Positions 1,974 through 12,882 of a stretch of DNA of 64,000 nt are shown piece by piece; position 1 is the first letter of the stretch; each line of letters opens with the position of its first letter. Under the pieces are notes generated by a model. The model had not been told where the DNA came from and did not search any database. It was given only the letters and a program-made list of their open reading frames with translations. This DNA is from an uncultured Bacteroidales bacterium (GTDB lineage Bacteria; Bacteroidota; Bacteroidia; Bacteroidales; Bacteroidaceae): NCBI GenBank assembly GCA_902799685.1, contig CADCBO010000020.1, positions 1 through 64,000 on the forward strand, in the 5' to 3' direction. Position numbers and translations under genes: made by a program.

Positions 1974-2396
1974 TTAGTGGGATACTGATTTAGCCGCCTC
2001 ACGTAAAGGTATGGGTATACCTTTATACGGAGAACCTGAATCTGTATTCATTTCTACTTGAGGCAGATAATCCCATTCCTTCATCTTGATCTCAAAGAAG
2101 GTCGTGTCAATAGGAATATCTACGGTCTCATAACCAACAAATGGTATCTGCATCCTGTCATCAGGGTTGACCAGACGGAAATGAAAATTACCACCAAAAT
2201 CAGTGACTGTGTGAGCTACAACACAGTCCAAAGAATCAAGCTCCACTACGTTTACCCAAATCATGGGGCCTATACTATCACGAATGATACCTGATATCGT
2301 ATCACCCGCCTTAGGCTTGTCCTGAGCAAACACGGTGGTTACGGCTGCCTGAAAGAACAGCAATACCATGAGGGAAATGAGTTTTGACGCTTTCAT
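1974..2396 (-). CDS. exported carboxypeptidase-regulatory-like domain protein
   Basis: I chose the ATG at 2396, which gives 140 residues and starts a clean signal peptide (MKASKLISLMVLLFFQAAVTTVFAQ). A longer frame from 2489 would run through the promoter. The mature part is a single carboxypeptidase-D regulatory-like beta sandwich (about residues 28-112) with the diagnostic GD-I-SGIIRD start, a VTDFGGNFHF turn and the VGYETV strand. This fold is the usual N-terminal module of SusC-type receptors, but no receptor follows here. A short tail of 30 residues ends in AKSVSH. It lies 94 bp downstream of the TonB-like gene but has its own type I promoter. Confidence 0.8.
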   Translation of the reverse strand: MKASKLISLMVLLFFQAAVTTVFAQDKPKAGDTISGIIRDSIGPMIWVNVVELDSLDCVVAHTVTDFGGNFHFRLVNPDDRMQIPFVGYETVDIPIDTTFFEIKMKEWDYLPQVEMNTDSGSPYKGIPIPLREAAKSVSH

Positions 2397-2414: not shown

Positions 2415-2473
2415 CAAATGTAAGTATAGATAGATTGTCAAAACATCAATTAGCCGTTGCAATATCGTTGCAT
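2415..2473 (-). promoter_or_regulatory. type I cluster promoter with twin TTGCAA box
   Basis: On the minus strand an ATGCAA/TTGCAA pair with 5 bp between hexamers lies at 2457-2473 and a perfect -7 TACATTTG lies at 2422-2415. The -33 position is degenerate (ATG in place of TTG) and the spacing to the -7 is one base longer than in the four other copies. The start codon is at 2396. Confidence 0.65.
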
Positions 2474-2490
2474 TTGAGCTTGCGGACAAT

Positions 2491-3480
2491 TTAGTTCAGG
2501 CGGAAATTGATAGGGAGGTTAAATCTGACGCGACAGGGTTTGCCTTCTACTTTTCCGGGATTCCATTTGGGCATTACTGAGATGATTCGGATTGCTTCGG
2601 CGTCTAGTTGATTGAAAATGCTTGAGTACACTTGATCCCTATTCTGACCAGAGCTTTTCACGACCACAGGATTGGTTATGGAACCGTCTTCCTCAACGAT
2701 AAACTGGACAATGACTCTTCCTTGAATGCTGTCCTTGACCGCTGCGGCTGGATATATCATAGTATTTTTAATAAACTCAAACAGAGCCGAAGAGCCCTCG
2801 GGATATTCCGGTCCTTCTGGAACTAAAATATATACTCCATCCTGGCCCTGTATAATACCCGGATTTCTTTCCTTTTCATCAGTATCTATTATTTCAATCA
2901 AAATATCATTGCTTGCTTTAGGATCGTTTTCCGCCTGCTTGAATTTTACAACTTCATCCATCCAGATTTTATCAGGAATATCTGTAAACTCACCTGTCTG
3001 GCATTCTGCAATCTTATCCGGAATAAGGGCATAAGCATAATTGCCATCATAGATTTCCACCCAAATAACTTCATCATTATTATTATCGGTTTTAGTGTAA
3101 GGGACTGATGCATTCTTGAGAATGGTCTTAGCCGATGTCTCCAGTTTATCTGCTAGCTGCTGCTGGATGCTCTTAGTCATAACTTTGCCGGCATTCTTGT
3201 AAACAAGATTGTACTTACCTCCTTGTTTTACAAGAAATATCCCATATATAAATGAGCCGTACGGGTCTTTCATCACATAACCGCAATCATAACCTTTGGG
3301 AGCATATTTCTGCAGCTGCTCCTCTGTGTATGGCATGTTATTTACTACTATAAATATTGGAGGATAAACGGATGATGTTTCATTTTCTAATGGCTGATTG
3401 CTCTGTAAACCGGATGCTGAGCATACAACAGCAAACGTGCCTAATACAGCGAAACCTAAAATTAAAAGGATTCTTTTCAT
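2491..3480 (-). CDS. TonB C-terminal domain protein with unknown central domain
   Basis: The 329-residue product has an N-terminal hydrophobic segment (about residues 4-22) that may be a membrane anchor or a signal peptide. The middle (about 45-185) is the unrecognised domain shared with the two genes at 3950-4756 and 4767-5576: YTEEQLQKYAPKGYDCGYVMKD, YGIFLVK, YDGNYAYALIPDK and IPDKIWMDE. The last 95 residues are a TonB C-terminal domain: LFEFIKNTMIYPAAA, GRVIVQFIVEEDGS, LDAEAIRI, MPKWNPGKVEGKPCRVRF and LPINFRL. TonB C-domains bind the TonB box of outer-membrane receptors. A proline-rich periplasmic spacer is lacking, so a normal energy-transducing role is uncertain. The promoter is type II (3504-3534). 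Confidence 0.8.
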   Translation of the reverse strand: MKRILLILGFAVLGTFAVVCSASGLQSNQPLENETSSVYPPIFIVVNNMPYTEEQLQKYAPKGYDCGYVMKDPYGSFIYGIFLVKQGGKYNLVYKNAGKVMTKSIQQQLADKLETSAKTILKNASVPYTKTDNNNDEVIWVEIYDGNYAYALIPDKIAECQTGEFTDIPDKIWMDEVVKFKQAENDPKASNDILIEIIDTDEKERNPGIIQGQDGVYILVPEGPEYPEGSSALFEFIKNTMIYPAAAVKDSIQGRVIVQFIVEEDGSITNPVVVKSSGQNRDQVYSSIFNQLDAEAIRIISVMPKWNPGKVEGKPCRVRFNLPINFRLN

Positions 3481-3503
3481 ACCGCTTTCATTTTATTGTT
3501 CAC

Positions 3504-3534
3504 TCTCTAAACGGCATGATATTGGGAATACGTC
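3504..3534 (-). promoter_or_regulatory. type II cluster promoter
   Basis: The minus strand reads GACGTATTCC, 10 bp, CCGTTTAGAGA, ending 23 bp before the ATG at 3480. It is the most diverged of the four copies, but block spacing and distance to the start are kept. Confidence 0.5.
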
Positions 3535-3949
3535 CCGATTTCTGGAATTATTTCATAAAAGGTATGTAGATCACACCTGACTGCCTACAGGAGAGTTTTT
3601 TCTCGTTTTCTGTCCCATTTTCAGGTTAGGAACAATTTGTGTAGTGTCGGTGCTGTAATCGTATATTGTTATATATAAGCCTTTTAGGTGAACAACAAGT
3701 TACCAGTCATTCCAAATCCAATTATTCCAGTTTATTTTCGGGATATGACAACATCCCCAATTTTCATATATAAATATCTATATATTAATTAGTTATATAA
3801 TATTAATAAGGGGTTATTGTACCTCAAATTTTAATTGGAATAACTGGAATTGGAATGGAAACCGTTTTCTAGAGCTGAATGACACCCGTAATTTATAACT
3901 GAGATTTGTGACTGTTATTACTCGAGTTCGCGGGTTTTTAAGAAAGCAT
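3535..3949. other. AT-rich intergenic stretch with facing TTCCA repeats
   Basis: No gene is visible in these 415 bp. Repeats of TTCCA at 3709-3733 face the complementary TGGAA repeats at 3833-3857 across about 100 bp of very AT-rich DNA, which could form a long weak hairpin. It lies just downstream of the gene ending at 3950. Confidence 0.4.
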
Positions 3950-4756
3950 TTATTTATTCTTGAACTTAAGGTATTCTTCCTGCCAAATTTCATCAGGAAT
4001 ATCCTCAGAACCATTAGTCCAGAAATAAGCAGCATTATCGGGAGTAACAACGTAGGCGGTATTGCCATCATAGAAGGTTGCTACATGAATAACCACTCCA
4101 TTGCTTCTTACTGTATTGGCTGTATTATTGGGAACCCCGACATAGGCAATCTTGCTTTCAACGGATGACATCAGCTTTTTTGCCTGACGGGACTTGATGC
4201 TTCTGCTCTCTGTGTAGTCAAACTTCTTATACACCATGCTGTATTGCTTTCCTTCCTTGACAAGATATATGCCGTATAGATAGGTTCCCCATGGATTCTT
4301 CATGACGTACCCGCAAACGTAATCCTTTGGAGCATTCTTTTGAAGTTCCTCCATTGTGTATGATTCGCTTCCGATTATTCCACGGCCACGAGGACTGGTA
4401 TCATGTGTTGCAGAATTATCCAGCACCAACTCTTCTTCTTTCATCTTGATTTCAAAGAAGGTCTTGTCAATAGGAATATTTACCGTTTCATAACCAACGT
4501 AGGTTATCTGCATCCTGTCATCAGGGCTGACCAGACGGAAAGAGAAATTACCCGCCAAATCAGTGATGGTGTGAGCTACAATACGGTCCGATGAATCACG
4601 CTCCGTTACGTTTACCATCATCATGGGACCACCTTCTTCACGAATGATACCGGAGATTGTATCACCCGCCTTAGGCTTGTCCTGAGCAAACACGATGGTT
4701 GAGGCTGCCTGAAAGAACAGCAATACCGTGAGAGAAATGAGTCTTGAAGCTTTCAC
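3950..4756 (-). CDS. exported carboxypeptidase-regulatory domain plus unknown shared domain
   Basis: The likely start is a GTG at 4756, because from there the protein (268 residues) aligns with the ATG start of the paralogue at 2396 (MKASRLISLTVLLFFQAA...FAQ); a GTG at 4762 is the alternative. After the signal peptide comes a carboxypeptidase-regulatory-like sandwich (about residues 30-115: GDTISGIIREEGG, VTERDSSDRIVAHTITD, NFSFRLVSPDDRMQITYVGYETV). Then comes the unrecognised domain (about 130-268: MEELQKNAPKDYVCGYVM, YGIYLVKEGKQYSMVYKK, YDGNTAYVVTPD, IPDEIWQEEYLKF). The start lies 10 bp after the stop of the upstream paralogue, so the two form one operon from the type I promoter at 5595-5652. 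The function is unknown. Confidence 0.8.
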   Translation of the reverse strand: MKASRLISLTVLLFFQAASTIVFAQDKPKAGDTISGIIREEGGPMMMVNVTERDSSDRIVAHTITDLAGNFSFRLVSPDDRMQITYVGYETVNIPIDKTFFEIKMKEEELVLDNSATHDTSPRGRGIIGSESYTMEELQKNAPKDYVCGYVMKNPWGTYLYGIYLVKEGKQYSMVYKKFDYTESRSIKSRQAKKLMSSVESKIAYVGVPNNTANTVRSNGVVIHVATFYDGNTAYVVTPDNAAYFWTNGSEDIPDEIWQEEYLKFKNK

Positions 4757-4766
4757 TACCACTTTC

Positions 4767-5576
4767 CTATTTGTTTTCTAGGAATATAAGGATCTCCTGC
4801 TGCCAAGCTTCATCCTTTATTCCAGTGTATTCTCCGTTGGAAGTATCCCAAGTCCAGAAATGTGCCGCCTTATCGGGAGTAACGGCAAAAGCAACATCAC
4901 CGTCATAAATTATATCCACCTCATCAAGTCCATCATATACATTTACAATAATTGGAGTACTCACGGCTTTTTCAATATCGGCAATCTTTTTGTTGACCGA
5001 TGCTTCCAGGTCCATGGCCAAATCAGACTTTATACTTCTTGTCTCTGTCTTGTCGGCCTCCTTATAAACAAGACTGTACTTGCGGCCTTCCTTTACAAGG
5101 AATATACCCCACAGGTTTTTGCTCCATGCATTCCGCATGATATAACCGCAGACAAAACTCTCCGGAGCATATTGCTTAAGTTTCTCCATAAAGTCAGTCT
5201 TGGTTCCCACCATTCCGCGATCACGTGGATAAACCTCTTTCGTACCAATTACCTTCCGTTCCATCTTGATTTCAAAATGAGTCTTTTCAATAGGCAACGA
5301 GACATGCGGATAGCCTACATATGTTATTTCAATACTATCATCAGGGTTGACCAGACGGAAAGAGAAATGACCCTCAGCATCGGTGATGGCGTGAGCTATA
5401 ATACGGTCCGACAAATCACGCTCCGTAACGTTTACCATCAACATAGGCCCATCATCATCGGAAACCATACCGGTAATGATATCACCAGCCTTAGGTTTGT
5501 TCTGAGCAAACACGGTTACTGCCGATGCCTGGATTAAGAGCATCAACACAAAAGAAAGGATTCTTGTAGTCTTCAT
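4767..5576 (-). CDS. exported carboxypeptidase-regulatory domain plus unknown shared domain (first gene of pair)
   Basis: The ATG at 5576 (269 residues) starts a signal peptide MKTTRILSFVLMLLIQASAVTVFAQ; the frame upstream overlaps the promoter and is not used. The layout equals the downstream neighbour: a regulatory-like beta sandwich (GDIITGMVSDDDGPMLMV, VTERDLSDRIIAHAITD, HFSFRLVNPDDSIEITYVGY) followed by the unknown domain (KLKQYAPESFVCGYIM, WGIFLVKEGRKYSLVYK, RSIKSDLAMDLEASVNKKIA, YDGDVAFAVTPDKAAHFWT, DEAWQQEILIF). The pair is a tandem duplication. The type I promoter at 5595-5652 lies just upstream. Confidence 0.8.
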   Translation of the reverse strand: MKTTRILSFVLMLLIQASAVTVFAQNKPKAGDIITGMVSDDDGPMLMVNVTERDLSDRIIAHAITDAEGHFSFRLVNPDDSIEITYVGYPHVSLPIEKTHFEIKMERKVIGTKEVYPRDRGMVGTKTDFMEKLKQYAPESFVCGYIMRNAWSKNLWGIFLVKEGRKYSLVYKEADKTETRSIKSDLAMDLEASVNKKIADIEKAVSTPIIVNVYDGLDEVDIIYDGDVAFAVTPDKAAHFWTWDTSNGEYTGIKDEAWQQEILIFLENK

Positions 5577-5594
5577 AAGCTTTTGTTTTTGCGA

Positions 5595-5652
5595 CAAAGA
5601 TATACCCCCATTAACCCTGATACAAGGAAAAAGCGTTGCAAAAACGTTGCAA
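5595..5652 (-). promoter_or_regulatory. type I cluster promoter with twin TTGCAA box
   Basis: On the minus strand TTGCAA hexamers lie at 5652-5647 and 5641-5636 (5 bp between). Then come 10 bp, a -33 TTG at 5625-5623, a 20-bp spacer, and -7 TATCTTTG at 5602-5595. The box sits directly upstream of the -33 element, the usual place for an activator site. The geometry is identical at 7929-7986, 7991-8048 and 12195-12252. Confidence 0.75.
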
Positions 5653-5705
5653 TTTACTGTCGTCAATTGCTACCTTTGCTCGCCACGCCAGATAAAGCAA
5701 GCATT

Positions 5706-5931
5706 CTATGGGCAGACGGGGCGGATTGAATGGCTATATTCACGAACGCCGTACTTATATATGGACACGAATCTGTCCTTAGGATCATCCGTTTAAAGTA
5801 TCAAATGTCCAGGTACAGTTATCTTTCAGTTCCTGCCATTCCTCAACAGTGGGCATACGCCAATCGGCACCCCAATTAACGTGTGCCGCATCGTCCTCGG
5901 GCAATGCAAATAATAGGACTCTTCTTCTCAT
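5706..5931 (-). pseudogene. FISUMP-type gene with large internal deletion
   Basis: From the ATG at 5931 the frame reads MRRRVLLFAL (the start of a signal peptide) and jumps directly to PEDDAAHVNWGADWRMPT, which is the middle of a FISUMP domain. The first half of the domain is missing. The frame stops after DTLNG. Beyond that stop the same frame still encodes the end of the family, EYSHSIRPVCP, with its own stop at 5706. The block matches the same part of the gene at 9284-11110 (EPEDDAAHVNWGGNWRIPT). Its first codons overlap the stop of the gene at 5928-6866. Confidence 0.75.
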
Positions 5932-6866
5932 AATGCCTGTTGTATCAATGACAACATCTTCTGGACAGTAAGGTCACTCTCTTTGAGCTTGATTTCATAT
6001 TGTTTCCCGTCCTTGCTTACTTGAGGCTCAGTCACATTGTCATCGACAATGAACGAGACGTAATTCTCATCATCAGCAAAATCTGACAGGGCATAAATCC
6101 AGTGTGCTACCTGCTGAATGGTTCTCCCGTATTTTTCACGATACAATTCCCTGTATTCTTCCTTGAAGTCTTTGTCAGCAAATGTAAAAACCACATCCAG
6201 ATTGCTACTGGACAATTCGCTGCCGAATGACGAATAAAGGCTTAAATGCTTTATGGCGGCAGGTTTGTTGTCTTGTGTCCATGGTATTGATACAGACACA
6301 GTTATAGGTATGACTTCTTTAGAATAGAATCTCTTTATTGAATGGCGTAACGAATCCGCCACAACAATCTGTTTATCCAAGCGCTTAATGTCATTGCCCC
6401 TGACACCTTTCATAACCTCCTCGAATACCGATACTATGTCGCGACACATTCCGTATGGTGACCAGCATCTTGCACCGTCAAAGTTATAGAACATGAAATA
6501 CGTCTGGCCGTCAAGTCCCATATAATCGCTGACGTATGAAGACGTCATGACCGAATGTTTGGCAAGCAGTTTCAGTGAACGATACAATTCCCGGCTGCAC
6601 TTTACACTATATTTTTTGCCTTCTTGTGAAGTAACAGTCAAATCACCCCCATACATTACCAATGATTCCAATATGTCCGGGGAAATCATCATATCAGACG
6701 GCATGATGAAATTGACATCGGCATATTTGGTGAAATATTTATCTATGTCCTTGCTCCAACTCTCATAACCTATCTTAGAGATTGGTGAAAACAGGTCCTG
6801 CGCGCCGGCATTAAGGCAGGCAACAGCCATTATGAGCGAGCAAATAAGTAGGTTGGTCTTTTTCAT
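5928..6866 (-). CDS. exported protein of unknown function
   Basis: The ATG at 6866 gives 312 residues and a clean signal peptide (MKKTNLLICSLIMAVACLNAGAQ); the frame extends ten codons further upstream to 6896, but that would place the start closer to the promoter. No known domain is recognised. The body is mixed polar and looks soluble, with a DGARCWSPYGMCRDIV block (two Cys) near the middle and a coiled, charged C-terminus (KDGKQYEIKLKESDLTVQKMLSLIQQAL). The type II promoter lies at 6897-6927. Given the signal peptide it acts in the periplasm or at the outer membrane. Confidence 0.7.
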   Translation of the reverse strand: MKKTNLLICSLIMAVACLNAGAQDLFSPISKIGYESWSKDIDKYFTKYADVNFIMPSDMMISPDILESLVMYGGDLTVTSQEGKKYSVKCSRELYRSLKLLAKHSVMTSSYVSDYMGLDGQTYFMFYNFDGARCWSPYGMCRDIVSVFEEVMKGVRGNDIKRLDKQIVVADSLRHSIKRFYSKEVIPITVSVSIPWTQDNKPAAIKHLSLYSSFGSELSSSNLDVVFTFADKDFKEEYRELYREKYGRTIQQVAHWIYALSDFADDENYVSFIVDDNVTEPQVSKDGKQYEIKLKESDLTVQKMLSLIQQAL

Positions 6867-6896
6867 ATGCTCCAGTCTTTTTAAATTACGTTTCAA

Positions 6897-6927
6897 TATA
6901 TAAACGGCTCAACCTTCAAAATGCGTC
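6897..6927 (-). promoter_or_regulatory. type II cluster promoter
   Basis: The minus strand reads GACGCATTTT, 10 bp, CCGTTTATATA, ending 30 bp before the ATG at 6866. The upstream block is identical to that at 554-584. Confidence 0.55.
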
Positions 6928-6956
6928 TATATTCATTAAAAAAAAGACGCTATGTG

Positions 6957-7907
6957 TCATTTCAGAATCCAGTTGTTATAGAAATCCTCTATTGAATAGT
7001 AGGTAGCATGATCTGACGGAATGTACAGACCATCTCCTGGTAATGAATTCAATTCTGTTTTTGAATTCTCTTTCAGTATTTCATCATTTATTGACTCCCA
7101 GGCATATTTGTTAACATCAGGATTATTACTTTCCATTCTTTTGGCCCACCCCTTTTTGGTAGTTACTTCAATAACCCCGTTAGCTCCTCTTGTCCCCCAA
7201 ATGGCGGTGGCGGCAGCGTCTTTCAATACCGATACACTTTTTATTTCATGCTCTTTGAGACCAAAAAGTCTGGCTACGTTTTCTTTGTCCACATGCAGTT
7301 TACCCAACATCAGTGAATCCAGACATTGCATGTTAACCGAAGAAACATCCATTATGCAACCGTCCAATACAATTAACCGTTTCCCATCTTTAGGATACTG
7401 AGGGCCGTATGCCCGAGCGCGCATTCCCTGATACCTGTCTTCACGGATAACGGGGAGCATAGCAGCTAGGGTACTGTCAACCTCGGTTATCCCGTCAAAG
7501 GCCATTTTTACATCCATGGCGTTGCCGGTAAACTCACTTACTGCCGTATGGTACCCAACATAAATTACTTCCAGGCGGTCTGCAGGATCAACAAGTTTGA
7601 AACTGAAGTTACCGTTAATATCAGTAACTGCATGCGCCACAAGACGGTCTATGGAATCCTTCTCCTCAACACGCACCATCATCATTGGGCCCAAAGGACC
7701 AGTGACACAACCTGTTATCAAATCGCCAGCCAAAGGCTTAGGGCCCGATACCACCACCTTAGACTGCAGAGTTTTTATGCTTGCAGCATCGGATACCACC
7801 TGGGCTCTGGAGTTTACAGACAGCATTGTGAACACAAAAAATGATACACTGTACAGCACGTTTCTCCAGCCACGTGACAAAAGGATTCTGAAGGTTCTGA
7901 ATTTCAT
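6957..7907 (-). CDS. exported mini-receptor: regulatory domain plus TonB plug, no barrel
   Basis: The ATG at 7907 is used; the frame can begin at a TTG at 7931, but that overlaps the -7 element. The 316-residue product has a long signal peptide, a carboxypeptidase-regulatory-like sandwich (about 55-145: GDLITGCVTGPLGPMMMV, HAVTDINGNFSFKLVDPADRLEVIYVGYHT), and a TonB-receptor plug-like block (about 185-265: RLIVLDGCIMD, HEIKSVSVLKDAAATAIWGT, GANGVIEVTTKKG). It ends without any beta-barrel. A SusC-type receptor would continue for about 700 more residues. The last 45 residues (NSLPGDGLYIPSDHATYYSI, DFYNNW) form a tail shared with the gene at 12277-12882. It is divergent from the DUF4419 gene, and both have type I promoters. 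Confidence 0.8.
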   Translation of the reverse strand: MKFRTFRILLSRGWRNVLYSVSFFVFTMLSVNSRAQVVSDAASIKTLQSKVVVSGPKPLAGDLITGCVTGPLGPMMMVRVEEKDSIDRLVAHAVTDINGNFSFKLVDPADRLEVIYVGYHTAVSEFTGNAMDVKMAFDGITEVDSTLAAMLPVIREDRYQGMRARAYGPQYPKDGKRLIVLDGCIMDVSSVNMQCLDSLMLGKLHVDKENVARLFGLKEHEIKSVSVLKDAAATAIWGTRGANGVIEVTTKKGWAKRMESNNPDVNKYAWESINDEILKENSKTELNSLPGDGLYIPSDHATYYSIEDFYNNWILK

Positions 7908-7928
7908 ATTCTTGTTGTTTTTGATGTC

Positions 7929-7986
7929 CAAAAGTACTTACCAAATTTACAATAGCCAAGAAAAAAGCGTTGCAAAAACGTTGCAA
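7929..7986 (-). promoter_or_regulatory. type I cluster promoter with twin TTGCAA box (leftward of divergent pair)
   Basis: TTGCAA hexamers lie at 7981-7986 and 7970-7975, followed on the minus strand by 10 bp, TTG (7959-7957), 20 bp and -7 TACTTTTG (7936-7929). The start codon is at 7907. The box is only 4 bp from the box of the rightward promoter, so four hexamers lie in a row. Confidence 0.75.
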
Positions 7987-7990
7987 TTTT

Positions 7991-8048
7991 TTGCAACGAT
8001 ATTGCAATGCCTGATGTTTGGTGGCCGAAAAAACTGGCAATACATTTG
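7991..8048 (+). promoter_or_regulatory. type I cluster promoter with twin TTGCAA box (rightward of divergent pair)
   Basis: TTGCAA at 7991-7996 and 8002-8007, then 10 bp, TTG at 8018-8020, a 20-bp spacer, and -7 TACATTTG at 8041-8048. The ATG of the DUF4419 gene is at 8080. Confidence 0.75.
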
Positions 8049-8079
8049 TCGGCAGAACAAATCAAAAAAAGATAAGGAT

Positions 8080-9258
8080 ATGAAAAAAACAGTAATATTG
8101 CTCATCTCGCTTTTATGCGTGAACGCGGTTTTTGCCAAGAAGGTTAAAACCGATAAAACCATCCAATACCTTAACGGAGGCGGAGTGAAGTTCCATATTG
8201 AGGACAAAGTGCCGCCTGAAACCCAATTGAAACAGAATTCCGGTCTGGTGTGCTGGGAGAAGATTCTGCGGGAATCTGGAGTGCCTGCATCTGAATACAA
8301 CATTAAGACACATAGCATCAATGATTCCAATCTGGTCTGTTTTAACCTCAATGCCTGTTTTGACGGTTTCCTGACAGCCTTTGACAAGCATTACTCACTA
8401 GTACTGTCACCAGATATGATAATGCTGCTAATAAGTCAGGGCATAGCCACCTATATAAATGAGAACGCTGAGAGCCTGCGTGACAAACTGGTGGATTTTG
8501 AGGGGCATAAAACGCTCAAAATAGAGATGCTCGGTGATCTGCTTCAGCAAGAGGAGGCCTGGGACTGGATAATTCCGGCATTAAGCGATTCTATCGACAA
8601 GAACATGAAGGCCAGGTTCTCAGACCTTATGGTGTGTGATTTTTCCACTACAGGGATGGTGGAACGCATCTCATCACAGATTACCATGATGGAGAGTGTA
8701 AAGAAGTATTTTAAATATATGGTTGTTGGTGCGGGATGCGGAATACCCGACATCACGCTTCTGGGTATGCCCGATGACTGGAAAAACATACGTTCACGCC
8801 TGTCAAGGCTTGATGACCTGGAGCTGGGCTGGTGGCGCCAGAAGCTGGAACCTGTGCTTGATGAGTTTGTGAATGCATCACAGGGTATTATCAACCGCAA
8901 GTTTTGGCGGGATATGGTAAATGAATATTCTCCTGAAGAAAGGACACAGGCCTTTTGTGGTTCAGGCATTATTCCTGCAAAGTATAACGGATGGTTCACG
9001 GTTTTCTTCCCGTTCTGTAAGGATAAATACACAGGTGAAGTTTCCCGTACCCCAAAAACCGTTACCCATAATACAAATGTCTGTTCCGAGATAAAGAAGG
9101 CAGATGTGTTGTATGTATATATTCATCCCGACGGCCGGGAAGAGACTCATAACCTTGAACTTTGGGCCGGGTTCATCGGCATGGAGATGGATTGGGAGAA
9201 CCGCACCCTCAAGCCTTCAATCAGCTGGATGATGCGTGAAAGGAGCGACAATGAATGA
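8080..9258 (+). CDS. exported DUF4419 family protein
   Basis: The ATG at 8080 (392 residues) starts a signal peptide (MKKTVILLISLLCVNAVFA); the much longer open frame upstream crosses the divergent promoters and is not coding. The body matches DUF4419: SLVLSPDMIMLLISQGIATYINENAE, then DFSTTGMVERISSQI, GCGIPDITLLGMPDDW and WFTVFFPFCKD. The family is widespread in fungi and bacteria with no settled function. A stop at 9258 is followed 25 bp later by the next gene, so the two form an operon under the type I promoter at 7991-8048. Confidence 0.85.
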   Translation: MKKTVILLISLLCVNAVFAKKVKTDKTIQYLNGGGVKFHIEDKVPPETQLKQNSGLVCWEKILRESGVPASEYNIKTHSINDSNLVCFNLNACFDGFLTAFDKHYSLVLSPDMIMLLISQGIATYINENAESLRDKLVDFEGHKTLKIEMLGDLLQQEEAWDWIIPALSDSIDKNMKARFSDLMVCDFSTTGMVERISSQITMMESVKKYFKYMVVGAGCGIPDITLLGMPDDWKNIRSRLSRLDDLELGWWRQKLEPVLDEFVNASQGIINRKFWRDMVNEYSPEERTQAFCGSGIIPAKYNGWFTVFFPFCKDKYTGEVSRTPKTVTHNTNVCSEIKKADVLYVYIHPDGREETHNLELWAGFIGMEMDWENRTLKPSISWMMRERSDNE

Positions 9259-9283
9259 CCAAATCAACAAAAAAACAACGAAT

Positions 9284-11110
9284 ATGAGAAAGCTTTTAAT
9301 CCTATTGTCAGCTTTGCTGCTTCAAGTAGCTGCAGCTTCCGTGTTTGCACAGGGTAAAGTTCAGCGTATTGATATGTCCGAGTTTGTAGGACTTGGAATA
9401 CAGACCGTTGATGAAGTACTTGTTGGAAAAATTGCAGACTCGGTTGTGATTTTTAATGATATGGCATTTGCAGATTATGTTGCTCCCAAACATTATGATA
9501 TCGATATGTACAGGTCCTCAAAAGTTATGCCGCAGGATCCGTTGAATATTGATATTCCTGGTGTTGAGTTTAAAGTTGACAATAACGGGTCAAGACAGAT
9601 AGTTCAGTTGCCGGAACAATACTATACTGATGTTGAGAATGGTCATAGGTATGTTGACTTGGGACTCAGCGTCAAATGGGCAACTTGTAACATAGGTGCA
9701 GACAGTCCGGAAATGACTGGCGGCAAATACGCTTGGGGTGAGGTTGCCACTAAGTCTGACTACACCTGGCAGAACTACCGTTTCAACAACGGGGGTGAAG
9801 GTTATTGGGATGTAAAACTGTCCAAATACAATTCAGACAGCAAATTGGGACCTGTTGATATGCATGAGGTGCTTGAGCCGGAAGATGATGCTGCACATGT
9901 GAATTGGGGCGGAAACTGGCGTATTCCTACTGCCCAGGAGTTCCAGGAACTGGCAAATAACTGCACTTTTATCTGGTCCACACTGAACGGCTGTGAAGGC
10001 TGTCTGATTGTAAGCAATAAACCGGGTTATACAGACCGTTTCATTTTCCTGCCCACAACAAGAAAGCGTACGGACGGAGTCGGTACATCTGATGGTTACT
10101 ATTGGTCCAGCACAACCAACCTGACCGATAGAAGAGGGTCAGTTAATCCCGGGCCATGCAGTAGTTATACTTTTTTAATTTGGAACATGTACAATCTTGT
10201 GATTTGGATTAACCTCGAGAATCAACGAAGCTTTGGCCTTACCATCCGTCCGGTCTGCCCTAAAGAAGAAATAACTACAGATGATTTTGAAGGACTGGAA
10301 ATGACCACTCAAGATGATCCTTTAGGTAGTTGTGATGATCTTGTTCCTATAGACAGTCTTTCATACTCTGCACAGAGGCTTAAGGAAAAAATCACTATAG
10401 AAAAAACTCCAAATGGCGATGTTTGGAGAGTCAGCAGGGATATTTATGAATATTTGTCGGAATTAACGCGTAAAACTGAATATAAAGGTTATGATGTCAC
10501 CACGACTGAAATTAAAGGTAAGGAGGAGTCACATACGATAAAGCACTGGAACAAAACAGATTCCATAGTGGAACATTTCAATTATAACAAAAATGGAGAG
10601 TTTGTACGGGACAAGGTAATCACATATACATATGATAGCAGGGCCAGATTGATATCCAAGAAGACAGAGTATGTTGATGCAGATAATCCCGTCTATCCCC
10701 AAAAACTGAATATGACGTTTTCTTATGACAGAAAGGGGATGCTTAAAAAAAAGATGGAAGGAGCATACGTGGGTAAGCGCATTCAAAACGATTTCTTAAG
10801 TCAATTTGCATGTGATGACACTATGATGACTGTCAGGACATTCCATGTTATAAGATACAGCAACAAAGGAAAAAAGAATCTGCTGCCACGCAAAGAACTG
10901 TATTCCACATGGACATCACATTTCAATGAACAAGGCCAGCTCATCCTTTACGAGAAGATTTTTAACCATAATGAATGGGAAATCATCAGATATCAGTATG
11001 ATGAGCAGGGAAAGACTTCAAAAGAAGAACACTACCACAAAGGCCCTCGGGATTCTGTTGAACGTTTGCAGGCTATCTACGAGTACGAATACAAATACTA
11101 TATGAAATAA
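9284..11110 (+). CDS. exported FISUMP protein with YD-like C-terminal half
   Basis: I chose the ATG at 9284 (608 residues) because it opens a signal peptide (MRKLLILLSALLLQVAAASVFAQ); an ATG at 9251 and a GTG at 9236 are in frame upstream. Residues about 1-120 are unique. A FISUMP domain follows at about 122-330 (RYVDLGLSVKWATCNIGA, DAAHVNWGGNWRIPT, YYWSSTT, LTIRPVCP). The C-terminal 260 residues hold repeated short strands of the YxYDxxGxL type (ITYTYDSRARLISK, MTFSYDRKGMLKK, IRYQYDEQGKTSK), as in DUF4595/RHS-like repeat proteins. It is the second gene of the DUF4419 operon. Confidence 0.8.
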   Translation: MRKLLILLSALLLQVAAASVFAQGKVQRIDMSEFVGLGIQTVDEVLVGKIADSVVIFNDMAFADYVAPKHYDIDMYRSSKVMPQDPLNIDIPGVEFKVDNNGSRQIVQLPEQYYTDVENGHRYVDLGLSVKWATCNIGADSPEMTGGKYAWGEVATKSDYTWQNYRFNNGGEGYWDVKLSKYNSDSKLGPVDMHEVLEPEDDAAHVNWGGNWRIPTAQEFQELANNCTFIWSTLNGCEGCLIVSNKPGYTDRFIFLPTTRKRTDGVGTSDGYYWSSTTNLTDRRGSVNPGPCSSYTFLIWNMYNLVIWINLENQRSFGLTIRPVCPKEEITTDDFEGLEMTTQDDPLGSCDDLVPIDSLSYSAQRLKEKITIEKTPNGDVWRVSRDIYEYLSELTRKTEYKGYDVTTTEIKGKEESHTIKHWNKTDSIVEHFNYNKNGEFVRDKVITYTYDSRARLISKKTEYVDADNPVYPQKLNMTFSYDRKGMLKKKMEGAYVGKRIQNDFLSQFACDDTMMTVRTFHVIRYSNKGKKNLLPRKELYSTWTSHFNEQGQLILYEKIFNHNEWEIIRYQYDEQGKTSKEEHYHKGPRDSVERLQAIYEYEYKYYMK

Positions 11111-11129
11111 TTACAACGTTTGCGTTAAG

Positions 11130-11516
11130 TCAATCTCGCGTATCTCCGTATGGAGGCATCTCCTCGTTAATGTAGTGCGGATTATTAGATGTTTCGAGTG
11201 AATACCCACTGACATATGTAAGTTTGGATCTTACTATGTCAATGTTTAGCGCTTTTTCTAGTCTGGCAATTGTTTCAAGCGTCATATTAGTGCTTCCTTT
11301 CAGCAAATTTGACACATACTGTTGGGTGCAGCCAATGCGTTCTGCTAGCTGTTTTTGTGTTACACCTTGTTCATCCATACTCTTCATTACCTGAAGTGTG
11401 ATGAACTGGGCGTATCTCAACCAATCATCATTATCCCTTCTCCATAGGGCATTCTCTCTCCAATGGGACGGAGTATCCGATTGATGCGAAGAAAGATATT
11501 CAATTGTTTTGTTCAT
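11130..11516 (-). CDS. XRE-family antitoxin-like regulator
   Basis: This 128-residue protein has an XRE helix-turn-helix at about residues 50-105 (GVTQKQLAERIGCTQQYVSNLLKGSTNMTLETIARLEKALN). The long N-terminal stretch with DDWLRYAQFITLQVM is typical of antitoxins of the HigA type in Bacteroidota. Its start overlaps the end of the upstream gene by 17 bp, so the two are translationally coupled. In this arrangement (toxin first, antitoxin second) the HTH protein usually neutralises the toxin and represses the operon through the inverted repeat at 12087-12102. Confidence 0.8.
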   Translation of the reverse strand: MNKTIEYLSSHQSDTPSHWRENALWRRDNDDWLRYAQFITLQVMKSMDEQGVTQKQLAERIGCTQQYVSNLLKGSTNMTLETIARLEKALNIDIVRSKLTYVSGYSLETSNNPHYINEEMPPYGDTRD

Positions 11517-12054
11517 TGTTATAATCGTTTAGTCCTTCTATATCATAAACACCAAGGTCTATCAATTTGTTTCTGACCTGCTCCAACTTTGCCAGTTCAG
11601 CCAAGGTGTGAGGTCGCTCAGACATTGTTGCGGTCAGTTTTATTGCTCCTCCGGTAATAAGATATGCACCCTTATCCATCTTTATGGCATAAATCCTTAA
11701 CCATGATGGGCGATATCCTAAACCATTGCCTTTAGCTTTCTCTTTTCCTAATGACATCTCAGAAAAACGACCGTTCTCAAGATGTCTGAACAGTTCGTCA
11801 AGGTTAGCCTGTGGTGATATGTCCAACATGAGACATTGCAGCACTTTTGCTTCCTGAAGCGTTTCCATAACAGCTTGATATACATCGGTAATTTTGAAAT
11901 AGGCCGATAAATCCGTTATGTTCTCCTGGAAGAATGCCCTTAGCCAAGACATATCATACCATTTTGCAAACAGAGAATCGAAACAATTGTCCGGCTCGTT
12001 GTCATATCTGACAGCCCAAAGCCTACCGTCATCTAAAATCTTATCAAAAGTCAT
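11500..12054 (-). CDS. putative toxin of a HigBA-like pair
   Basis: The 184-residue product lies directly upstream of and overlaps the XRE gene. Its C-terminal part (SWLRIYAIKMDKGAYLITGGAIKLTATM, then HTLAELAKLEQVRNKL) is a pattern I associate with Bacteroidota proteins encoded beside HTH antitoxins. It resembles a RelE/HigB core strand followed by helices, but the known catalytic residues cannot be assigned by eye. It is most likely a growth-inhibiting toxin; an uncharacterised phage-defence or accessory role is an alternative. Confidence 0.6.
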   Translation of the reverse strand: MTFDKILDDGRLWAVRYDNEPDNCFDSLFAKWYDMSWLRAFFQENITDLSAYFKITDVYQAVMETLQEAKVLQCLMLDISPQANLDELFRHLENGRFSEMSLGKEKAKGNGLGYRPSWLRIYAIKMDKGAYLITGGAIKLTATMSERPHTLAELAKLEQVRNKLIDLGVYDIEGLNDYNNEQNN

Positions 12055-12075
12055 AGTATAAATTGTTTTTCATTG

Positions 12076-12102
12076 CAAATATATAAACAATATTTATATT
12101 GT
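12076..12102 (-). promoter_or_regulatory. toxin-antitoxin promoter and inverted-repeat operator
   Basis: An exact inverted repeat ACAATA-N4-TATTGT spans 12087-12102. On the minus strand it is followed by a perfect -7 TATATTTG at 12083-12076; the start codon is at 12054. The dyad lies in the -33/-7 spacer, the right place for repression by the XRE protein. Confidence 0.65.
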
Positions 12103-12194
12103 ACAACATTTGAGTTGTTTTATTCAACGTTTGCGTTAAACCGAATGACCAGAGAAAGGTTTGCTTTATCTGACGTGGCAAGCAAAAGTCGCGA

Positions 12195-12252
12195 ATGCAA
12201 CGTTTTTGCAACGCTTTTTACTTGCTCATTATAAACATGGCAACTACTTTTG
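12195..12252 (+). promoter_or_regulatory. type I cluster promoter with twin TTGCAA box
   Basis: ATGCAA at 12195-12200 and TTGCAA at 12206-12211, then 10 bp, TTG at 12222-12224, a 20-bp spacer, and -7 TACTTTTG at 12245-12252. The start codon is at 12277. Confidence 0.75.
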
Positions 12253-12276: not shown

Positions 12277-12882
12277 ATGAAAAAGGCATTAACTACATCT
12301 TTATTGCTGCTTGCGACATTTGCATCTGTATTTGCACAGGAAACGATTAAGAAAGGTGATTTGATATACGGTACTGTTACAGAAAACGGAGAGCCCGTTG
12401 CCGGAGTCACTGTAACTGAAAGAAATGGATGGGACCGTATTATGGCTCAAGCCAAAACCGATTCAAACGGTCAGTTCTCTTTCCGTACGGTCAATCCCGA
12501 CAACAGGATTATGGTAACCTACTATAATCATGAGACTGTTGATATTCCCATCAACAAACGATGCTTGGACATTAAAATAAAAGAGCTTCCACCTCTCCAA
12601 CCCATAGAACTTATAGATGGCCCTGTTCCACCTGTTGTTTTGGAAGAAATGAGTGCCAGAATAGGAATAATTGATTTTAAATCGTATGAACTGTCATCAT
12701 TTCGTCCAAATGAATTTAAGTGGGAGTTGATAAACACCGAGATAGGTAGAATGCATAGCATCACTGAATATAATTCAATTCCCGGAAAGGGTTTGTACAT
12801 CCCGTCGGCCGATCATGCCACCTATTATTCGATAGATGATTTCTACAACAACTGGCTGCTTCCCATCAAGTCAATGTATTGA
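12277..12882 (+). CDS. exported regulatory-like domain protein with shared C-terminal tail
   Basis: The ATG at 12277 (201 residues) starts a signal peptide (MKKALTTSLLLLATFASVFAQ). A carboxypeptidase-regulatory-like sandwich follows (about 24-108: KKGDLIYGTVTENGEPVAGV, KTDSNGQFSFRTVNPDNRIMV). The middle is unique. The last 45 residues (WELINTEIGRM, SIPGKGLYIPSADHATYYSI, DFYNNW) are nearly the same as the end of the plug protein at 6957-7907, although the regions before them differ. The gene is the last of the cluster and is followed by the rplU promoter. Confidence 0.8.
   Translation: MKKALTTSLLLLATFASVFAQETIKKGDLIYGTVTENGEPVAGVTVTERNGWDRIMAQAKTDSNGQFSFRTVNPDNRIMVTYYNHETVDIPINKRCLDIKIKELPPLQPIELIDGPVPPVVLEEMSARIGIIDFKSYELSSFRPNEFKWELINTEIGRMHSITEYNSIPGKGLYIPSADHATYYSIDDFYNNWLLPIKSMY

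What the first reader, a model, noticed from the sequence alone, without database searches (positions are those of the whole stretch)
2415..12252. Five promoters with a fixed twin TTGCAA box define an unknown regulon
Seen: five promoters of exported-protein genes (starts at 2396, 5576, 7907, 8080, 12277) carry TTGCAA-N5-TTGCAA. Four of them have exactly 10 bp to the -33 TTG and 20 bp to a perfect TAnnTTTG. Known: activators in bacteria often bind just upstream of the -33/-35 element. Inference: one unidentified activator switches on the whole set. The two hexamers are each palindromic and 11 bp apart, one helical turn.
Basis: partly seen in the sequence, partly recalled or inferred. Interest (0 to 1): 0.8.

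Follow-up and report, generated by a model that had tools for sequence, protein, structure and literature searches.

The report
Twin-box regulon of exported proteins
A rumen-type Bacteroidaceae genome carries about 27 exported-protein genes behind one fixed promoter design, and the best candidate for the protein that switches them on joins a phosphate transporter to a DNA-binding domain.

Summary
The box is real and genome-wide. The assembly holds 18 exact and 27 one-mismatch TTGCAA-N5-TTGCAA places (reversed control 12). Twenty-seven are promoters of the form WTGCAACRKTW-TTGCAACGC-N7-TTG-N20/21-TAnnTTTG. All 26 readable first genes encode signal-bearing proteins, against 15 of 60 other ORFs. 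The element reads better as an 11-bp direct repeat of TTGCAACG than as two palindromes; that is the layout of OmpR/PhoB-family operators (recalled).

The assembly shows only two such DNA-binding domains: RprY, and a ~650-aa Na+/Pi cotransporter + PhoU + PhoB-type domain fusion on the window's contig. In 37 same-genus genomes the fusion occurs in 21, all with at least 3 sites; of 16 without it, 10 have none. In other genera, 8 of 8 readable fusion genes carry a related repeat, TGTAAC-N5-TGTAAC or a close variant, upstream.

My reading: a transporter-fused one-component regulator activates the set. The regulon is well supported, the regulator likely but unproven, a phosphate signal inferred. Against it: fusion-bearing genomes form one clade, four genomes outside it have sites, and two pst clusters lack the box.

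The parts
2457..2473 (-). twin box ATGCAACGATATTGCAA, promoter 1
   Evidence: one mismatch to TTGCAA-N5-TTGCAA
2415..2422 (-). -7 element TACATTTG of promoter 1 (the -33 position, 2444-2446, reads ATG; spacing one base longer)
1977..2396 (-). exported CarboxypepD_reg-like protein, 140 aa
   Evidence: Pfam hits below gathering cut-off
5636..5652 (-). twin box TTGCAACGTTTTTGCAA, promoter 2
5595..5602 (-). -7 element TATCTTTG of promoter 2; TTG at 5623-5625
4770..5576 (-). exported CarboxypepD_reg-like protein, 269 aa
   Evidence: below cut-off
7970..7986 (-). twin box TTGCAACGTTTTTGCAA, promoter 3 (divergent pair with promoter 4)
7929..7936 (-). -7 element TACTTTTG of promoter 3; TTG at 7957-7959
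6960..7907 (-). exported CarboxypepD_reg-like protein, 316 aa
   Evidence: below cut-off
7991..8007 (+). twin box TTGCAACGATATTGCAA, promoter 4
8041..8048 (+). -7 element TACATTTG of promoter 4; TTG at 8018-8020
8080..9255 (+). exported DUF4419 protein (PF14388, 1.3e-65)
9284..11107 (+). following gene on the same strand: protein with a weak Lcl_C match (below cut-off) and a YD-repeat match; possibly the same operon (not tested)
12195..12211 (+). twin box ATGCAACGTTTTTGCAA, promoter 5
12245..12252 (+). -7 element TACTTTTG of promoter 5; TTG at 12222-12224
12277..12879 (+). exported CarboxypepD_reg protein, 201 aa (PF13620 above cut-off)

Best explanation
The twin box is a head-to-tail operator with an 11-bp period: two TTGCAACG half-sites, one helical turn apart. 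It sits about 10 bp upstream of the -33 element of a Bacteroidota primary-sigma promoter and is bound by a PhoB-type winged-helix dimer that recruits RNA polymerase. The most likely binder is a membrane protein encoded on the same contig, outside the window (G000 C20, about 92.7-94.7 kb). It consists of a Na+/Pi-cotransporter domain, a PhoU domain and a C-terminal PhoB-type DNA-binding domain, with no receiver domain. I propose that it acts as a one-component regulator: transport state, read through PhoU, frees or positions the DNA-binding domain, and this switches on about 27 genes for exported proteins or lipoproteins. Shown: motif, geometry, regulon membership by sequence, signal-bearing products, domain architecture, co-occurrence. 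Inferred: that this protein binds the box, that it activates, and that phosphate or sodium is the signal.
For: (1) 27 promoter-linked sites in the genome with fixed geometry; a logo from 73 non-redundant promoters shows a directional 11-bp repeat and nothing above 0.35 bits upstream. (2) Hexamer-N5-hexamer direct repeats are the recalled layout of OmpR/PhoB-family boxes; the best solved match to the fusion's DNA-binding domain is that of PhoB, 1gxp, 4e-15. (3) The assembly shows two Trans_reg_C domains at E <= 0.001: the fusion and RprY. G024 (100% complete) and G104 (97%) also show two. (4) Of 37 same-genus genomes, 21 have the fusion and 21 of 21 have at least 3 sites; of 16 without it, 10 have none (Fisher p 2.3e-5). 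(5) In other genera, 8 of 8 readable fusion genes (1 of 9 not readable) carry TGTAAC-N5-TGTAAC or a variant with one changed base in one or both boxes, period 11, just upstream. (6) The NCBIfam model for Bacteroidota PhoB matches the fusion's DNA-binding domain at 3.4e-35, RprY's model only at 1.6e-11. (7) Stand-alone PhoB was seen in 5 of the 37 genomes, none with the fusion; TG[T/C]AAC pairs lie beside 4 of 7 PhoB loci read. (8) RprY's recognition helix is identical in the site-bearing and site-less genomes compared (15 sequences), and the two rprXY loci read have no box. (9) In S. aureus the PhoU domain of NptA is reported among accessory regulators of phosphate homeostasis (PMC13170248, abstract start and passages).
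Against: An rprY tree of 32 of the 37 same-genus genomes plus 3 other-genus rows puts all 18 fusion-bearing genomes it holds on one branch (support 85/90, below the tool's star), with G202 and G207, which lack the fusion but have sites; the co-occurrence is therefore close to one evolutionary event, and the three other-genus rows fall inside the genus, so the tree is weak. Four genomes outside that branch have sites without a detected fusion: G215 (3 sites, has PhoB), G208 (2), G119 (1), G214 (1); they are 81-90% complete. The same-genus fusion gene lacks a forward twin TTGCAACG box upstream; 8 of 8 such promoters instead share a reverse-oriented block ending in GTTACAA (GTTATAA in G104). Two clear pst clusters (G150, G206) have no box, nor do the other 10 PBP_like_2 loci (8 of 22 genomes had hits). 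The TGTAAC pattern is only weakly enriched in the 9 fusion-bearing genomes of other genera (16 matches against 7 control) and not in 23 without it (29 against 31). TGCAAAC-type repeats at the same geometry occur in genomes without the fusion (G014, G081, G098). No regulon gene is an obvious phosphate gene. In the window's own genome the fusion lacks about 15 residues of its first membrane helix. No binding or expression data exist.
Confidence: 0.6

Rival explanations
1. A different regulator not seen here (in the missing part of the genome, or of another DNA-binding family such as AraC-type or MarR-type) binds the box; the fusion is a bystander of the same clade.
For: G000 is 85.8% complete. 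The co-occurrence is nearly one event. Four genomes outside the clade carry sites without a detected fusion. The hexamers are palindromic, which other families could read. Other DNA-binding families were not surveyed.
Against: The directional CG(C) extension and the 11-bp period; the most complete site-bearing genomes (G024 100%, G104 97%) show only two OmpR/PhoB-type domains; a related repeat sits upstream of the fusion gene in 8 of 8 readable other-genus cases.
Confidence: 0.2
2. The response regulator RprY binds the box, and its regulon has expanded in this clade.
For: RprY is the only complete OmpR-type response regulator found in the assembly; such regulators use direct repeats (recalled).
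Against: RprY was found in most of the 37 genomes, including site-less G050, G070 and G088 (96-98% complete), with an invariant recognition helix in the 15 sequences compared, yet 10 of 37 genomes have no site and 11 of 189 other-genus genomes have any match, one of them (G176) of the same consensus. The two rprXY loci read carry no box. The passages seen in two P. gingivalis RprY papers give no motif.
Confidence: 0.1
3. The twin box is, or is also, a recombination or insertion site where upstream segments are exchanged; its conservation reflects shuffling of duplicated promoter-gene units.
For: Several contigs begin or end 100-104 or 141-143 bases upstream of the box, as if one assembly k-mer away (k values recalled), with upstream stretches that are identical within an assembly. 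Between two genomes a 74-bp segment bounded by TTGCAACG is present in one and absent in the other.
Against: Nothing upstream is conserved in the 73-promoter logo. Conservation follows promoter geometry (TTG at the -33 position in 71 of 73, not forced by the pattern). A sharp left edge is also expected if selection simply stops at the operator. No recombinase was looked for.
Confidence: 0.05
4. The sites are remnants of gene duplication: related genes share a copied promoter and no common regulator is needed.
For: Several products belong to repeated families: 9 CarboxypepD_reg-like and 5 DUF4419 first genes among the 27.
Against: The box is shared by unrelated families (DUF4419, MG2, TonB_C, RHS-repeat, Big_2/Lcl_C, LRR_5) while the 20-bp spacers and leaders differ. 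The DUF4419 genes read in site-less genomes G217 and G070 lack the box.
Confidence: 0.05

Closest known systems
PhoB and the Pho box (E. coli PhoB-DNA, PDB 1gxp; B. fragilis PhoB BF1576, PMC3547664, abstract start and one passage)
   Same: 11-bp head-to-tail repeats (recalled for the Pho box); PhoB-type DNA-binding domain; related repeats beside Na/Pi-cotransporter, PiT and PhoBR genes in relatives
   Different: No receiver domain; fused to a transporter and PhoU; different half-site (TTGCAACG); box absent from the two clear pst clusters read; targets are exported proteins, mostly of unknown function
OmpR/PhoB-family operators such as the PhoP box and WalR box (recalled)
   Same: Hexamer-N5-hexamer direct repeat just upstream of a promoter
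   Different: Half-site sequence, and a candidate binder that is a one-component membrane protein
ToxR/CadC-type membrane-integrated regulators (PMC5430869, search listing only)
   Same: A winged-helix DNA-binding domain tethered to the membrane, without a phosphorelay
   Different: Here the domain is C-terminal, after a polytopic transporter and PhoU; CadC-type proteins have it N-terminal with one membrane helix (recalled)
NptA with a C-terminal PhoU domain in S. aureus (PMC13170248, abstract start and passages)
   Same: Na/Pi cotransporter + PhoU; the PhoU domain is reported to take part in phosphate homeostasis
   Different: S. aureus also has the PhoPR two-component system; the passages seen mention no DNA-binding domain in NptA
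RprY response regulator (P. gingivalis, PMC3646045 and PMC6032018, passages)
   Same: OmpR-family regulator, present in this genome
   Different: Invariant recognition helix in site-less genomes; no motif in the passages seen

Membership tests
OmpR/PhoB-family operator | Direct repeat of half-sites with 11-bp period | tested here: met
   73 non-redundant promoters; directional extension at unforced positions, G 71/73 and C 66/73 after box 2
OmpR/PhoB-family operator | Fixed position just upstream of the promoter | tested here: met
   16 of 18 exact and 9 of 27 one-mismatch places have TAnnTTTG at 33 or 34 bases
OmpR/PhoB-family operator | Bound by a winged-helix regulator | not testable with these tools
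   needs a binding assay
PhoB response regulator (Bacteroidota, NF053854) | PhoB-type DNA-binding domain | tested here: met
   3.4e-35 over residues 554-651 against profile 128-225
PhoB response regulator (Bacteroidota, NF053854) | Full-length match above cut-off, with receiver domain | tested here: not met
   121.4 bits against cut-off 270; only the DNA-binding part matches; no receiver domain in Pfam
Pho regulon | Operator at the pst operon | tested here: not met
   no TG[C/T]AAC pair, up to 1 mismatch, in the two clear pst clusters (G150, G206, both with PhoB) nor in the 10 other PBP_like_2 loci; none of the fusion-bearing genomes searched showed a clear pst cluster by eye
Pho regulon | Induced by phosphate limitation | not testable with these tools
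   needs expression data
Na/Pi cotransporter family (PF02690, NF037997) | Na_Pi_cotrans domains | tested here: met
   8.4e-50 in Pfam; NF037997 173.1 bits, cut-off 50
ToxR/CadC-type regulators | N-terminal winged helix followed by a single membrane helix | tested here: not met
   the DNA-binding domain is C-terminal; the transporter part has several membrane-like segments
RprY regulon | Same operator wherever RprY with the same recognition helix is present | tested here: not met
   identical helix in G050, G070, G088 (0 sites) and G000 (24 sites)
Bacteroidota primary-sigma promoter | -33 TTG-type element and -7 TAnnTTTG | tested here: met
   TTG in 71 of 73 (unforced); TAnnTTTG at 33 or 34 bases in 25 of the 45 places found without requiring it; consensus recalled

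The most novel reading that the evidence does not exclude
A Na+/phosphate symporter is itself the transcription factor. Transporter, PhoU sensor and PhoB DNA-binding domain are joined in one membrane protein that replaces the PhoR-PhoB pair, and its operator has been redeployed from transporter and PhoBR promoters to a large, variable set of surface and exported proteins in gut and rumen Bacteroidaceae.
Probability: 0.45. Interest if true: 0.82.

Novelty: new variant of a known kind. Interest (0 to 1): 0.66.

Why it matters
It gives one testable regulator-operator pair for a large set of exported proteins, mostly of unknown function, in rumen and gut Bacteroidaceae. If the candidate is right, it shows a way to join nutrient transport and gene control in one membrane protein, with no phosphorelay. 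The related repeats near Na/Pi-cotransporter, PiT and PhoBR genes offer a sequence handle on phosphate control in Bacteroidales; my searches and the passages I saw showed no Pho-box sequence for the phylum.

Tried and rejected
RprY as regulator: considered because it is the only full OmpR-type response regulator found; rejected as first choice. Site-specific recombination as the main role: raised by contig ends at the box; kept as a low rival because the logo shows no conserved upstream sequence. Pho box of pst genes: not met in two pst clusters, so I do not call the element a Pho box. The idea that fusion-bearing genomes of other genera carry the same large regulon: not supported. Loose matching in the window (2 mismatches) has no power.

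Literature: the listings showed no description of this box or of this fusion; most papers were seen only as listings. DUF4419 appeared in one listed paper (listing only). Passages were seen in PMC3646045, PMC6032018, PMC3547664, PMC8115612 and PMC13170248; none was read whole.

Not done: a survey of other DNA-binding families; a tree of all 37 genomes (rprY was taken from 32); a measured secretion prediction. One search uses a hydropathy and lipobox rule of my own, and its background is 60 six-frame ORFs of 150 aa or more from 11 loci, some of which may not be genes, so the contrast is rough.

Rows dropped or judged: one search reduced 95 distinct modules to 73 at 75% identity, and its pattern forces part of the boxes and the -7 element. 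One search left out one of 27 genes (C30:2036) because no ORF of 60 codons or more followed its start; its first codons look like a signal peptide. The count of 27 promoters includes two judged by eye: C17:54525 with GATATTTG, and C11:66446 with a second, shifted box pair. One search listed only part of its matches; fusions are those whose match reaches the end of the query, and one of them (G063) matches 31-305 only. The name FISUMP for the Lcl_C-like proteins is recalled and comes from no call.
Full report
OBSERVATION. The window holds five promoters with the described box. Three are exact TTGCAA-N5-TTGCAA (5636-5652, 7970-7986, 7991-8007; 0 in 100 shuffles). Two start with A (2457-2473, 12195-12211). 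Four have N10-TTG-N20-TAnnTTTG exactly. The first has ATG at the -33 position and one more base to the -7 element. Gene starts at 2396, 5576, 7907, 8080 and 12277 are right; the -7 element ends 18 to 31 bases before the ATG.

GENOME-WIDE. The window is G000:C20:1-64000 of a 2.81-Mb, 37-contig assembly, 85.8% complete. It has 18 exact and 27 one-mismatch twin boxes; the reversed pattern has 12. Of the 18 exact places, 16 have TAnnTTTG 33 or 34 bases downstream on one strand; of the 27 one-mismatch places, 9 do. Two more were accepted by eye (C17:54525, C11:66446), giving 27 promoters. The single-box module TTGCAA-N10-TTG-N20-TAnnTTTG has 18 exact places, all within this set, so no exact single-box module was found elsewhere.

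SHAPE OF THE ELEMENT. From the loci then in hand I took 95 distinct modules and reduced them to 73 by similarity of 77 bp downstream. Positions not forced by the search show G or A after the first TGCAAC, G (71/73) and C (66/73) after the second TTGCAA(C/T), a T-rich stretch, and TTG at the -33 position (71/73). Upstream of box 1 nothing exceeds 0.35 bits. The unit is therefore TTGCAACG repeated head to tail every 11 bp. Hexamer-N5-hexamer direct repeats are typical of OmpR/PhoB-family operators (recalled).

TARGETS. Of 26 readable first genes, 26 have a signal peptide or lipobox by my simple rule, against 15 of 60 other six-frame ORFs from the same genome (binomial p about 2e-16; the background is rough). 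Domains: 5 DUF4419; 9 CarboxypepD_reg-like (6 of 9 below the Pfam cut-off); MG2; TonB_C; Big_2 with Lcl_C; RHS-repeat; LRR_5; several have none. The genome has 7 DUF4419 genes; 5 directly follow a boxed promoter and 2 lie further downstream on the strand of a boxed first gene (operon not tested). The DUF4419 genes read in site-less genomes G217 and G070 have no box.

DISTRIBUTION. In 201 family genomes, 9 of 12 same-genus genomes and 11 of 189 others match the 30-bp pattern; the others have 1-2 matches each, one (G176) with the same consensus. A promoter pattern found 94 stretches in the named genome collection, nearly all titled as Bacteroidales MAGs, many from rumen, horse and deer; part of them belong to other genera with another consensus. 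In the genus, 27 of 37 genomes match a related 30-bp pattern and 10 have none.

CANDIDATE REGULATOR. Two Trans_reg_C domains were found in the assembly: RprY, and the C-terminus of a 652-aa protein at C20 about 92.7-94.7 kb with Na_Pi_cotrans (8.4e-50), PhoU (3.3e-6) and Trans_reg_C (1.3e-20). Its DNA-binding domain matches NCBIfam's Bacteroidota PhoB model at 3.4e-35 and RprY's at 1.6e-11; its best solved match is PhoB, 1gxp, 4e-15. In 37 genomes the fusion occurs in 21; all 21 have 3 to 24 sites. Of 16 without it, 10 have none and 6 have 1 to 6 (Fisher p 2.3e-5). Five of those 16 have stand-alone PhoB instead, all above the NF053854 cut-off.

LINK BETWEEN CANDIDATE AND BOX. A match reaching the DNA-binding domain was found in 17 of 201 family genomes, 8 in this genus and 9 in four other genera (capped list; G063 partial). 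In those 9, 8 genes could be read; all 8 carry an 11-bp direct repeat just upstream. It is TGTAAC-N5-TGTAAC exactly in four (G122, G113, G023, G049) and has variant letters in four (G166, G075, G110, G183). G113's was also found by a promoter pattern. Similar repeats lie beside PhoB or transporter genes in G150, G078, G010 and G210; in G212 a tandem array mixes TGTAAC and TGCAAC. Three of seven PhoB loci read (G204, G206, G215) have no pair. The genus box TTGCAAC thus differs by one base from the box at the fusion's own gene elsewhere.

AGAINST. The rprY tree (32 of 37 genomes plus 3 other-genus rows) puts the 18 fusion-bearing genomes it holds on one branch (85/90, not starred) with G202 and G207, which have sites but no detected fusion and are 83% and 62% complete. 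G215, G208, G119 and G214 have sites outside it, upstream of DUF4419 genes (G215, G208, G119) and of relatives of other regulon products by eye; for G214 no product was read. Two clear pst clusters have no box, nor do the 10 other PBP_like_2 loci. The TGTAAC pattern is 16 against 7 control in the 9 fusion-bearing genomes of other genera and 29 against 31 in the 23 without it, so their regulons must be small. TGCAAAC-type repeats at the same geometry exist in genomes without the fusion, so related operators have other binders. The same-genus fusion promoters carry a reverse-oriented block, not the twin box (8 of 8). The fusion in this very genome lacks about 15 residues of the first membrane helix that the 7 other same-genus proteins have.

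RPRY. Its recognition helix is invariant in the 15 sequences compared, the two rprXY loci read have no box, and passages of two P. gingivalis papers give no motif.

MECHANISM. I think a PhoB-type dimer sits on the two half-sites on one face of the helix, next to RNA polymerase at the -33 element, as PhoB-family activators do (recalled). The binder is held in the membrane as part of the transporter. NptA's PhoU domain is reported among regulators of phosphate homeostasis in S. aureus (PMC13170248, abstract start and passages), so a PhoU-gated DNA-binding domain is a small step from a known arrangement. The phosphate signal is inference from domain identity alone; no regulon gene is an obvious phosphate gene.

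VERDICT. The regulon is real at the sequence level. The operator type is well supported. The regulator is a specific, testable candidate (0.6). I rate it a new variant of a known kind.

Noticed in passing
L045, L046 (same contig as L121), L077, L103, L165 (141-143 bases) and L102, L123, L136 (100-104 bases): Contigs of several MAGs begin or end 100-104 or 141-143 bases upstream of the twin box; those upstream stretches are identical within one assembly and over 90% alike between several. This suggests alternative joins at the box within one genome or population.
   Followed up: partly
14 of 123 distinct sites, e.g. L086, L153, L157: A flank GAGTCAACC(TTTTTTAGG...) starts exactly 28 bp upstream of box 1 at 14 of 123 distinct sites, after unrelated upstream genes. 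In the loci of the window's genome that were searched it was seen once, in L035:3867, where 74 bp more separate it from the twin box.
   Followed up: partly
L035:3895-3968 compared with L153: At the same locus this genome carries a 74-bp segment, starting with TTGCAACG and followed by the twin box, that a relative lacks.
   Followed up: partly
L196:3741-5696 (G000 C20, about 92.7 kb): The fusion gene of this genome lacks about 15 residues of the first membrane helix that the 7 other same-genus proteins aligned have; this genome also has the most sites of the 37 (24).
   Followed up: no
L089, L091, L120, L122, L154; genomes G014, G081, G098: TGCAAAC-N4-TGCAAAC repeats at the same promoter geometry lie upstream of a family of lipoproteins and other genes in other genera, also where no fusion was found: a sister operator with an unknown binder.
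   Followed up: partly
L265:1841-1880: Four tandem 11-bp boxes (TGTAAC, TGTAAC, TGCAAC, TGCAAA) between a PiT transporter gene and PhoB in G212, followed by what looks like the start of a Na/Pi-cotransporter gene that soon stops (by eye).
   Followed up: no
L141 (record titled Clostridia bacterium): Holds a TGCAAAC-type module nearly the same as that of L091 (titled Paraprevotella); probably a wrongly binned contig.
   Followed up: partly
loci: The rprY stretch lies within 1 kb of a contig end in 29 of the 32 same-genus assemblies fetched (contig lengths), as if a repeat follows it.
   Followed up: no
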